A stretch of DNA of 64,000 bases from Streptomyces sp. NRRL F-525 (GTDB lineage Bacteria; Actinomycetota; Actinomycetes; Streptomycetales; Streptomycetaceae): the NCBI RefSeq assembly GCF_000716605.1, contig NZ_JNXE01000006.1, positions 282,698 to 346,697 of the forward strand. Reading direction: 5' to 3'. Position 1 is the first letter of the stretch, and every line of letters starts with the position of its first letter. The position numbers and the translations under genes were made by a program. This document shows positions 47,534 through 50,362 of this stretch, piece by piece. Below the pieces are notes generated by a model. That model did not search any database and was not told the origin of the DNA. It saw only the letters and a program-made list of their open reading frames with translations.

Positions 47534-48061
47534 ATGGCCATTCCGGTTGGCGGGGGCGCGATGTCGAGGATGAGCCAGGAGACACGTGACGCGGCGGTGC
47601 GTGCCGCCGGGGAGGCCGGGCTCGGTGAGCTGAAGGCCGTCTACGACCGCTCCCGGTTCGGCGCGTGGGTCCTCGGGGTGTCAGGCTGCGTTTTCGTGGC
47701 CTTCCTGTTGCCCGTCGTCGTGATCGACACCGTCGACGACGGCGTGTCCGGCAAGACGTACGCGGGGGTCGTCATCTGCCTGGGGATGATCGTCGGAATG
47801 TCGCTCGCCGCCCGCGTCGTGTCGCGGAACTCCGAGGGCGGCATCGTCCACTTCGAGGGCGGGGTGGTCGAGACCTACGGCGCGGGCAGCGAGACGGTCT
47901 GTGCCTGGCGCGACGTCACCGAGGTCCGACGACTGTCCAGGAACCCGATCTTTCCCACGACGTACGCCATCACCGCCGGGGGACGCCGACTCACGGTCGG
48001 ACGCGACGAGTTCACCCGCTGCCGACCGCTGCTGAAGGACATAGCGAAACACCGGAATTGA
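47534..48061 (+). CDS. two-helix membrane protein with PH-like domain
   Basis: A 175-residue protein: a soluble N-terminal helix (SQETRDAAVRAAGEAGLGELKAVYDR), two hydrophobic helices near residues 48-70 and 82-104 and a C-terminal strand-rich domain with GIVHFEGGVVETYGAGSETVCAWRDVTEVRRL and GRRLTVGRDEFTRCRPLLKDIAKHR, a pattern seen in bacterial PH-like membrane proteins. Function unknown. Alternative ATG starts exist at 47561 and 47570. It is alone between the TetR gene and the GyrB-like gene. Confidence 0.65.
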   Translation: MAIPVGGGAMSRMSQETRDAAVRAAGEAGLGELKAVYDRSRFGAWVLGVSGCVFVAFLLPVVVIDTVDDGVSGKTYAGVVICLGMIVGMSLAARVVSRNSEGGIVHFEGGVVETYGAGSETVCAWRDVTEVRRLSRNPIFPTTYAITAGGRRLTVGRDEFTRCRPLLKDIAKHRN

Positions 48062-48271
48062 GGCCCCCAGGGGTGCCCGGAACGGGGTCGTACGCGGCTT
48101 CGGCGGGCCCTCGGACACGCTCCGGGTGTGGTGCGCGACGGCTGCGCCGCCCGCCTCCCGGCACGTCTTCACCTGCCCGTGTGCGGCCTCGGCGTAGTGG
48201 CTCTGACCTGGTGTTTTCCTTGAATCCGCCTACGCTGGGGTGATCAACCGAACGCCGTGGGAGGGGTCTTC

Positions 48272-49423
48272 GTGGGTGCGGAAGGTATGGAGTACGACGC
48301 TGCTCACATCAAGGTGCTGGAAGGCTGGGAAGCCGTCCGGAAGCGGCCCGGGATGTACGTCGGCTCGACCGGTGAACGCGGGCTGTACACCCTCGTGTTG
48401 GGTGTCGTCGACCGGGCCGTGGGCGAGGTCCTGGCGGGCCGCGCCGGCTCCGTCGACGTGACGCTCACGGCGGACGGCGGTGTGCGGGTCGCCGACGACG
48501 GGACGGGAGGTGGTGGGCCCCATGGCCCGGACCTCGAAGCGCAGTTGACCAGTTTCCAATTGGTTCCCGGCCCCATCGGCCGGCACACCGCGGTCGTCGC
48601 CCCCTTCAGCATGGGGCTCTTCGTCTCCAACGCCCTGTCGAGTCGGCTCACGGCCGAGGTGCGGGGCGAGGGGACCCGATGGGCCAAGGAGTACGCGCGC
48701 GGTGTCGAGGTCGAACAGGCCGACGCCGAGGGGCCGTTGACCGGAGAGGGGACGACCATCTCCTTCTGGCCCGACACCGAGATCTTCGAGACGACATGGC
48801 TCTCGTTCCCCGTGCTGGCGGAGCGATTCCGTCAACTGGCGTTCCTCAACCGGGGCTTGGCCGTCTCGCTGACCGATGAACGCCCGGCGAACGGGGTTCG
48901 GAGGGTGCTGTACCAATTCCCGGACGGAGTACGGGACTTCGTGGCCGCCCTCGACGCGGAAGCGGGGGCGTGCCCCCATGCGGACGTCTTCGGCTTCGAG
49001 CGGGAGGACACGAGAATGGCGGGGACGATGGAAGTGGCCCTGCTGTGGGGGTACTCCCACAGCGCGCAGACACGCGGCTTCGCCAACAGCCTGGCCACTC
49101 ACGAGGGCGGTACGCATCTGGACGGCTTCCGCGAGGGAGTGGTGGACGCGGTCACCGCGTTCGCACGGGAACGGGAGCTGCCGGGCGCGTCCGACCTCGA
49201 TGCCCGCACCGACCGTATCGTCGAGGGGCTCACCGCGGTCGTGTCGGTGAAGCTCGACCAACCCGAATACCTCGGCGCCACCCGCACGTTGCTGGGCAAC
49301 ACCGACGTGCGGGTCTGCGTGGCGGAGGCCGTCCGGGAACACCTCGGCACCTGGTTCGAGGAGCGGCCGGAGCGGGCCGCGCGCGTCGTCGCCGGGATCG
49401 TACGAGACAGCGGCCAGGACTGA
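48272..49423 (+). CDS. GyrB-like protein reduced to the ATPase and transducer domains, catalytic residues lost
   Basis: A 383-residue protein that aligns by eye with the first 390 residues of GyrB (HIKVLEGWEAVRKRPGMYVGSTGERGL..., EGGTHLDGFR, RTLLGNTDVRVCVAEAV) and ends before the TOPRIM domain. The residues GyrB needs for ATP hydrolysis are gone: the catalytic Glu (E42 in E. coli) is Gly44, the magnesium Asn (N46) is Arg48, the ATP-lid GLHGVG reads PFSMGL, and the transducer Lys (K337) is Arg. Adenine-binding Asp73 is kept (Asp75). It should not hydrolyse ATP or cut DNA, yet its frame is intact. GTG 48272 follows GGGAGGGG. Confidence 0.82.
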   Translation: MGAEGMEYDAAHIKVLEGWEAVRKRPGMYVGSTGERGLYTLVLGVVDRAVGEVLAGRAGSVDVTLTADGGVRVADDGTGGGGPHGPDLEAQLTSFQLVPGPIGRHTAVVAPFSMGLFVSNALSSRLTAEVRGEGTRWAKEYARGVEVEQADAEGPLTGEGTTISFWPDTEIFETTWLSFPVLAERFRQLAFLNRGLAVSLTDERPANGVRRVLYQFPDGVRDFVAALDAEAGACPHADVFGFEREDTRMAGTMEVALLWGYSHSAQTRGFANSLATHEGGTHLDGFREGVVDAVTAFARERELPGASDLDARTDRIVEGLTAVVSVKLDQPEYLGATRTLLGNTDVRVCVAEAVREHLGTWFEERPERAARVVAGIVRDSGQD

Positions 49424-49457
49424 CACCCGCGGGCGGTCCGTCCGGAACGACTCGGCT

Positions 49458-49488
49458 GCCGGTGCGGGAGACCAGTCCCCGCACCGGC
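49458..49488. terminator. bidirectional hairpin terminator
   Basis: GCCGGTGCGGG (49458-49468) pairs perfectly over eleven bases with CCCGCACCGGC (49478-49488). It lies between the GyrB-like stop and the end of the convergent phosphotransferase remnant. Confidence 0.7.
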
Positions 49489-50362
49489 TCAACTCACCGC
49501 CTCCAACAGGGCGATGACGTAGGCGTCCAGCCGCTCCTCCACAGCCCGCGTCGTCAGCTCGCCCAGCCCCGCCTCCCGCCACGGCTGAGCCACCGGCCCC
49601 ACACCGGACCCGAACGCCAGCGCGTCCAGCAACCGCCAGTACAACCGCCCGCGGCCGCGGCCAGAACCCCGCCTGCCTCCTCGTACGCCTCGGGGAACCG
49701 CAGACCCCAGGCAGGGCCGTGCAGCAGCGCGAGGTTGGTGGAGCAGTGCGCCACATCCAGGTCCGCCGGTCCCCAGGAGGTCTGCACCCAGTCGACGACG
49801 CCGCTGATGCCGAGACCTGCCCCGTTGCGGGACGGCACGTCGAACAGCACGTTCCCGGGGTGGAAGTCCCGGTGCAGGAACCGTCCCTCGTACCGGGGCG
49901 CGGCTTGCGGATGACGTCGGTCGCCGCGGCCCAGGCCACCGCGTCGGCGCCGTGCGGAGGGACGACGGCGTCGGCGGTCGTCCACGCCTGGTACTCCTGG
50001 GGCCGGTCGGCGGGGCGCAGGGCGTGGATCGCCACGAGTTGCCGGGCCAGCAGGGGGACACGCGCCTCCAGTCCCTCGTCGGCGAGGACCGTCCGGCCCG
50101 GCAGACGGGTCATGAGGAGCGAGGGGTACTCGCAGTGCGCGGCGCCCGGATCCACCGCGACCGGTGCGGGAGCCGGCACGTCGGTGTCCGCGAGCAGGGC
50201 GACGGCGTCGGCCTCGCGGTGCAGCAGGTCCTCGGCGTGCTCCACGAAGTACGGGTCGACGAAGGTCCGCAGCACGAGGTGACGGGTGTCTCCGTCCTGT
50301 GTACCGATGGTCAGCCGCCGCATCTCGGCGGTGATGCCGCACCACGCATGCCACTGGGCCAC
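49489..50362 (-). pseudogene. frameshifted aminoglycoside-phosphotransferase-like kinase
   Basis: Three frames together read like one APH-fold kinase. From GTG 50362: an N-lobe with HLVLRTFVDPYF and EYPSLLMTRLPGRTVLADEG. Near 49900 the frame shifts to the catalytic loop LHRDFHPGNVLFDV (with the HxDxxxxN pattern) and ISGVVDWVQTSWGPADLDVAH (the DxD-like metal loop). Near 49650 it shifts again to WRLLDALAFGSGVGPVAQPW to the stop. The start is also missing several expected N-terminal residues, because the frame opens directly after the stop codon (50378-50380) of the propeller lipoprotein gene, which is in the same frame. Either two real frameshifts or two sequencing errors in GC-rich tracts. Confidence 0.75.

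What the first reader, a model, noticed from the sequence alone, without database searches (positions are those of the whole stretch)
48272..49423. A GyrB look-alike with a dead ATPase and no TOPRIM domain
The 383-residue protein keeps the GyrB fold and open frame but has replaced the catalytic Glu, magnesium Asn, ATP-lid glycines and transducer Lys. Such a pseudo-gyrase subunit could bind GyrA/GyrB, act as an inhibitor or decoy, or protect against gyrase poisons. The intact frame after losing every catalytic residue argues for selection for another role.
Basis: partly seen in the sequence, partly recalled or inferred. Interest (0 to 1): 0.75.

Follow-up and report, generated by a model that had tools for sequence, protein, structure and literature searches.

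The report
Truncated dead gyrase-B family in Streptomyces
This Streptomyces gene makes only the front half of the DNA-coiling enzyme gyrase, with its ATP-burning site ruined; it belongs to a widespread family that selection still keeps and that carries its own conserved promoter-like leader, and what it does is not known.

The parts
48272..49423 (+). short pseudo-GyrB gene (383 aa, GTG start)
   Evidence: the 97% identical relative is also 383 aa
48290..48886 (+). GHKL (ATPase-like) domain with degraded ATP site: E42->G at 48401-48403, N46->R at 48413-48415; D73 and T165 equivalents kept
48887..49405 (+). transducer domain PF00204; QTK-loop Lys337->Arg at 49283-49285; protein ends here, no TOPRIM
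48054..48271 (+). conserved leader block shared by family members in differing neighbourhoods; sharp 5' edge at GGAAT
   Evidence: 35 of 37 loci; profile R1 E=2.6e-46 here (this sequence was among those R1 was built from)
48200..48219 (+). most conserved leader core GCTCTGACCTGGTGTTTTCC
   Evidence: core plus -10-like site upstream of 34 of 39 short genes and 0 of 603 other predicted genes
48231..48236 (+). -10-like hexamer TACGCT (TAnnnT across the family); promoter role inferred
   Evidence: the sigma-70 consensus scan found no promoter in 48000-49700
48260..48266 (+). ribosome binding site GGAGGGG

Best explanation
It is a GyrB-derived pseudoenzyme: an N-gate module (GHKL plus transducer) that most likely arose once by truncation, lost Mg-ATP hydrolysis (N46, Q335, K337) before the family spread, and is kept as an accessory gene with its own promoter in Streptomyces and relatives. 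Supported here: fold, truncation, residue losses, one clade, purifying selection, conserved leader. Inferred: it still dimerises through the retained N-terminal arm (Y5/I10 equivalents) and works as a non-catalytic partner or cap on the ATPase domains of GyrB, lowering or resetting gyrase strand passage. It does not bind GyrA, because it has no TOPRIM.
For: Fold. Residues: 0/232 keep N46 or K337; Y5 217/232, I10 215/232, D73 221/232, T165 226/232 kept. N-arm conservation equals that in GyrB (0.77 vs 0.76) while the lid falls from 0.95 to 0.46 (42 short, 44 full-length GyrB). One clade. dN/dS median 0.52 over 66 pairs of 12 chosen members vs 0.14 over 21 pairs of seven GyrB genes. Full GyrB and ParE exist in the same genome. 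No spare GyrA/ParC: two full matches in each of 40 genomes, G011 having a further sub-threshold fragment. Passages seen: Asn46, Lys103, Gln335 and Lys337 bind the triphosphate (PMC4388272); Ile10 is required for E. coli GyrB dimerisation (PMC4585971).
Against: No binding data. Fast evolution is not what a protein tied to slow-evolving GyrB would show. GyrB is a monomer without nucleotide and a dimer with it (passage in PMC4585971), and this protein may not bind nucleotide. [quoted passage not shown] The N-arm is no more conserved than the rest of the protein. A homodimer explains the arm equally well.
Confidence: 0.35

Rival explanations
1. It acts alone as a homodimeric, hydrolysis-free clamp or scaffold on DNA of chromosome arms and linear replicons, sharing ancestry with a relative found beside the telomere helicase; gyrase itself is not the target.
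For: The sister subfamily lies just inside an HA/ResIII helicase within about 5 kb of replicon ends at both ends of NZ_CP108701.1, in NZ_CP108189.1 and NZ_CP108274.1 (close relatives), and at the end of an 8.7-Mb contig of G098. Window-type genes lie in the outer quarter of the arm in 7 of 7 chromosomes with a central origin, and in 3 more if those contigs are taken as rotated. The cavity Arg286 equivalent (role recalled) is R in 182/232.
Against: The helicase occurs in 283 plasmid records, the telomere-type short gene in five. Window-type genes on plasmids are often far from the ends. Outer-arm position is usual for Streptomyces accessory genes (general knowledge). The protein is acidic (net -19, pI 4.9), though so are the GyrB N-domains (median -18).
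Confidence: 0.22
2. It is a nucleotide or small-molecule sensor: the adenine floor of the pocket is kept, Arg replaces the Mg-binding Asn, and ligand binding alters dimerisation to signal to another partner.
For: D73, G75, G119 and T165 are kept in 221, 225, 222 and 226 of 232; N46 became Arg in 181/232.
Against: The ATP lid is variable and lies in stretches of lower predicted confidence. In the sister subfamily the Asn is Tyr (8 of 8). No partner gene is widely conserved.
Confidence: 0.18
3. It is a weakly constrained accessory gene near the end of its useful life, maintained by horizontal spread rather than by a strong function.
For: dN/dS about 0.5, patchy presence (20 of 199), fragmentary matches in G041 and G043.
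Against: 20 of 20 matches lack internal stops (threshold favours intact copies), while neutral evolution to 20% divergence gives 3.8 stops on average and 2.1% stop-free copies. Codon-position GC contrast is kept (0.73/0.50/0.87). The leader is conserved.
Confidence: 0.15
4. It is a decoy that soaks up a gyrase-targeting agent (an aminocoumarin or a protein toxin that attacks the GyrB ATPase domain).
For: The GyrB ATPase fold is kept without gyrase function; Streptomyces produce aminocoumarins (recalled).
Against: R76 is lost in most window-type proteins. The lid Tyr that is nearly invariant in GyrB (Y109 and the Fic modification site by recall) is most often His, in 43% of 42. No drug or toxin gene is a widely shared neighbour.
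Confidence: 0.07

Closest known systems
GyrB N-terminal 43/47-kDa domain (PDB 1KIJ, 3ZKB, 1EI1, 4WUB)
   Same: whole fold, N-terminal arm residues, adenine-floor residues, cavity Arg
   Different: a natural gene rather than a fragment; Mg-Asn, QTK Gln/Lys and most of the lid lost; Glu lost in this lineage
PDB 3CWV, 'DNA gyrase, B subunit, truncated' of Myxococcus xanthus
   Different: only 26% identical and not placed in the trees; whether it keeps the catalytic residues was not tested
Second full-length GyrB copies of Streptomyces (G036, G082)
   Same: extra GyrB genes in the genome
   Different: full length; they fall with ordinary GyrB in the tree
Telomere-linked short GyrB ('ATP-binding protein', e.g. 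WP_331741584.1)
   Same: same truncation, N46 lost in 8 of 8 and K337 in 7 of 8, homologous leader, sister clade
   Different: keeps E42, R76 and lid glycines G114/G117/G119; Asn46 became Tyr; sometimes beside the telomere helicase

Membership tests
DNA gyrase subunit B (GyrB equivalog) | GHKL plus transducer fold | tested here: met
DNA gyrase subunit B (GyrB equivalog) | catalytic Glu42 and Mg-ligand Asn46 | tested here: not met
   Gly and Arg
DNA gyrase subunit B (GyrB equivalog) | QTK-loop Gln335 and Lys337 | tested here: not met
   Ala and Arg
DNA gyrase subunit B (GyrB equivalog) | TOPRIM/C-terminal half, profile score over cut-off | tested here: not met
   match ends at profile position 373 of 639; 274.9 vs 882.4 bits
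DNA gyrase subunit B (GyrB equivalog) | ATP-dependent supercoiling with GyrA | not testable with these tools
   needs biochemistry
HATPase_c PF02518 | score over gathering cut-off | tested here: not met
   no match for the window protein at E<=0.001; many homologues are listed with it, and the telomere-type protein reaches it
Short pseudo-GyrB clade described here | one clade apart from full-length GyrB | tested here: met
   SH-aLRT 100 (97 rows) and 99 (51 rows); quick trees, no bootstrap
Short pseudo-GyrB clade described here | N46 and K337 lost | tested here: met
   232 of 232 window-type, gaps counted as lost; 8 of 8 and 7 of 8 telomere-type
Short pseudo-GyrB clade described here | conserved TGACCTG...TAnnnT leader | tested here: met
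   34 of 39 short genes, 0 of 603 others; core absent upstream of 45 of 45 full-length gyrB/parE loci scanned
Known anti-phage defence proteins (PADLOC) | match to a PADLOC model | tested here: not met
   0 families for 2 proteins at E<=0.001
Truncated GyrB of the 3CWV kind | common descent and same active-site state | tested here: inconclusive
   fold and sequence match only; residues and descent not compared

The most novel reading that the evidence does not exclude
A GyrB N-gate domain was released from gyrase once, lost ATP hydrolysis and became a dedicated regulator of DNA topology on linear replicons and chromosome arms of streptomycetes, with its own promoter class shared by at least two subfamilies and possibly a methyltransferase gene: a pseudo-topoisomerase regulator of linear chromosomes.
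Probability: 0.2. Interest if true: 0.8.

Novelty: new variant of a known kind. Interest (0 to 1): 0.55.

Why it matters
Databases label many of these proteins 'DNA gyrase subunit B', yet without TOPRIM and the ATP ligands they cannot be gyrase. A naturally evolved, hydrolysis-dead GyrB43 would show what the N-gate can do without ATP turnover, and could be a natural modulator of a main antibiotic target in a genus that makes gyrase-directed antibiotics. The shared promoter-like leader gives a handle on when the gene is used.

Tried and rejected
Pseudogene: made unlikely by stop-free matches, dN/dS, the neutral simulation and the conserved leader; the stop-free count comes from a strict threshold, and looked only at open frames over 200 aa, so broken copies are undercounted. 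Conserved operon or partner: of 40 loci, 39 held a member; no neighbour family within eight genes is shared by more than 5 loci, mostly close relatives. Spare GyrA/ParC partner: none in 40 genomes, 20 with and 20 without the gene. Defence system: no PADLOC match. Phage origin: 68 phage records match, all under 60% identity. Structured leader RNA: two predicted pairs, no pair with changes on both sides; no Rfam match. Leader as a coding sequence: no clear 3-base periodicity, but one minus-strand frame is open in 26 of 35, so a small ORF is not excluded. Leader as a gyrB promoter: the core is absent within 400 nt (262 nt in one) upstream of the RPGM codons in 45 of 45 full-length gyrB/parE loci, some of them the same gene twice. 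Separate origin of the telomere type: disfavoured by the tree and by leader homology. Strict telomere function: weakened.

Results against specificity of the leader: the core alone occurs at 19 places in 16 of 121 genomes (0 reversed controls); seven are at short gyrB genes and 12 elsewhere. Two of 37 loci, L118 and L039, lack the exact core. The core-plus-hexamer pattern was written after seeing the sequences; its 39 genes include one broken copy and one genome twice, and it found 36 sites in 793,366 bp, two beyond the 34. Profile hits L211 (E 5.6e-5) and L212 (0.0012) are not upstream of such genes. R1 E-values are rough.

Limits: the careful IQ-TREE search did not finish; quick trees with SH-aLRT only are reported. 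dN/dS is Nei-Gojobori on GC-rich codons, so dS is probably underestimated. The 232 proteins are the query plus two overlapping lists of the 120 best hits, not a random sample. For the tree I used a chosen subset and left out one near-identical telomere-type copy (NBC00044).

Literature: ten searches listed no paper whose title or abstract start concerns a short or dead GyrB of Streptomyces; the library holds open-licence papers only. I saw passages of PMC8743542, PMC4585971, PMC4388272 and PMC6676996 (the last uses gyrB only as a marker gene), and only listings of the others.

Full report

The ATP site. By E. coli numbering (recalled), the window protein has Gly at 42, Arg at 46, Thr at 76, Ala/Phe/Ser at 114/116/117, Ala at 335 and Arg at 337; it keeps D73, G75, G77, G119, T165, E50, Y5 and I10. 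In 232 sampled homologues (294-423 aa) Asn46 is kept in none (R 181, W 17, Q 15, others 17, gap 2) and Lys337 in none (R 167, H 34, C 11, others 19, gap 1). Glu42 is kept in 150, with Asp in 46. The nominal catalytic Glu is therefore the variable part, and the Mg and phosphate ligands are the fixed loss. Asn46, Lys103, Gln335 and Lys337 are named as triphosphate ligands in PMC4388272 (passage).

Descent and spread. In a quick tree of 97 proteins all 42 window-type short proteins form one side of a branch against 55 full-length GyrB/ParE (SH-aLRT 100). In a second quick tree of 51, window-type (22) and telomere-type (8) together form one side against 21 full-length proteins (SH-aLRT 99). The gene is found in 20 of 199 Streptomyces genomes, own included, at E<=1e-100 and in 26 of 197 genomes of the order at 1e-90. 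Kitasatospora and Embleya records are also named, and it occurs on linear plasmids.

Selection. Median dN/dS over 66 pairs of 12 chosen members is 0.52, against 0.14 over 21 pairs of seven GyrB genes. All 20 matches lack internal stops, though its threshold favours intact copies; neutral evolution of the window gene to 20% divergence would leave 3.8 stops on average and 2.1% stop-free copies. Matches in G041 and G043 are fragmentary. The ATP lid has decayed (mean column conservation 0.46 vs 0.95 in GyrB), whereas the N-terminal arm (0.77 vs 0.76) and transducer residues 201-260 (0.67 vs 0.56) have not.

The leader. In 35 of 37 loci (a duplicate genome and a broken copy left out beforehand) a block of about 220 bp upstream of the gene is conserved although the neighbourhoods differ, and it aligns with few gaps. 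It has a sharp 5' edge at GGAAT, an almost invariant core GCTCTGACCTGG..TTTT, a TAnnnT hexamer and a GGAGGGG site. In the sequences printed, nothing is visibly conserved beyond the stop codon except among close relatives. Core plus hexamer is found upstream of 34 of 39 short genes and 0 of 603 other predicted genes in the same loci. A sequence profile built only from window-type leaders gives, as best hits in G012, G098 and G065, the leaders of the telomere-type genes (E 6.8e-9, 2.3e-8, 6.9e-7). The core is absent upstream of 45 of 45 full-length gyrB/parE loci scanned. Weaker profile hits lie upstream of the same putative methyltransferase gene in G012 and G098 (E 8.6e-6 and 0.0014), but hits of like strength, L211 and L212, have no such gene. 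The core alone is not private to these genes: of 19 places in 121 genomes, seven are at short gyrB genes. No RNA structure was found.

The telomere link and its limits. The sister subfamily (44-45% identical to the window protein) lies directly inside a DEAD/ResIII helicase with HA domains near the ends of NZ_CP108701.1 (both ends), NZ_CP108189.1 and NZ_CP108274.1, and at the end of an 8.7-Mb contig of G098, about 5 kb in. [quoted passage not shown] I did not compare with TtrA itself. The helicase occurs in 283 plasmid records (206 with at least 80% of it), the telomere-type gene in five at 60% identity or more. Copies in NZ_CP108712.1, NZ_CP107820.1, G012 and G065 have no intact helicase beside them. 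Ten of the 20 positive genomes gave usable chromosome coordinates: in seven with a central origin the window-type gene lies at 0.75-0.95 of the arm, and in three more at 0.80-0.91 if their contigs are taken as rotated, an assumption. Accessory genes in general favour the arms (general knowledge), and window-type copies on plasmids are often far from the ends.

Mechanism. The parts that remain are the N-gate: dimer arm, nucleotide-pocket floor and transducer. The parts that are gone are hydrolysis and the TOPRIM half. The simplest working model is a non-catalytic N-gate partner that pairs with itself or with GyrB. I prefer the GyrB-pairing version by a small margin because the Y5/I10 arm is kept, but homodimer, clamp and sensor models are close rivals, and none was tested. 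The passage in PMC4585971 that names Ile10 as needed in E. [quoted passage not shown]

Verdict. A real, selected pseudoenzyme family for which I found no description in ten literature searches: a new variant of a known fold family, with an unexpected conserved leader. Identity and pseudoenzyme state: about 0.9 sure. Mechanism: about 0.35.

Noticed in passing
window 49489-50362 (-): A phosphotransferase-family (APH-like, by eye) ORF downstream appears split between two reading frames, whereas look-alikes at the same place in L034 and L111 are single predicted ORFs.
   Followed up: no
L133, L138, L140 (xylB-xylA intergenic, by eye), L139, L151/L153: The core GCTCTGACCTGGnGTTTTC also occurs, without an evident -10-like half, near unrelated genes: 12 of 19 places in 121 genomes are not at short gyrB genes, with 0 reversed-pattern controls. 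It may be a general Streptomyces regulatory or terminator-associated motif.
   Followed up: partly
L210 and L213: A putative SAM methyltransferase gene in two species has a leader resembling that of the short gyrB genes; a possible shared regulon.
   Followed up: partly
L158, L159, L163, L168, L200: Short GyrB-like gene directly inside the telomere-proximal HA/ResIII helicase on linear plasmids and one chromosome-sized contig.
   Followed up: yes
L160 and L167 (NZ_CP108614.1): The same window-type protein and neighbours occur about 9 kb from both ends, so probably in the terminal inverted repeat, with a DNA polymerase III beta-subunit gene nearby.
   Followed up: no
L202 (G036) and L203 (G082): Second full-length GyrB genes, grouping with Streptomyces GyrB; no gyrA was recognised beside them by eye among the predicted genes shown.
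   Followed up: no
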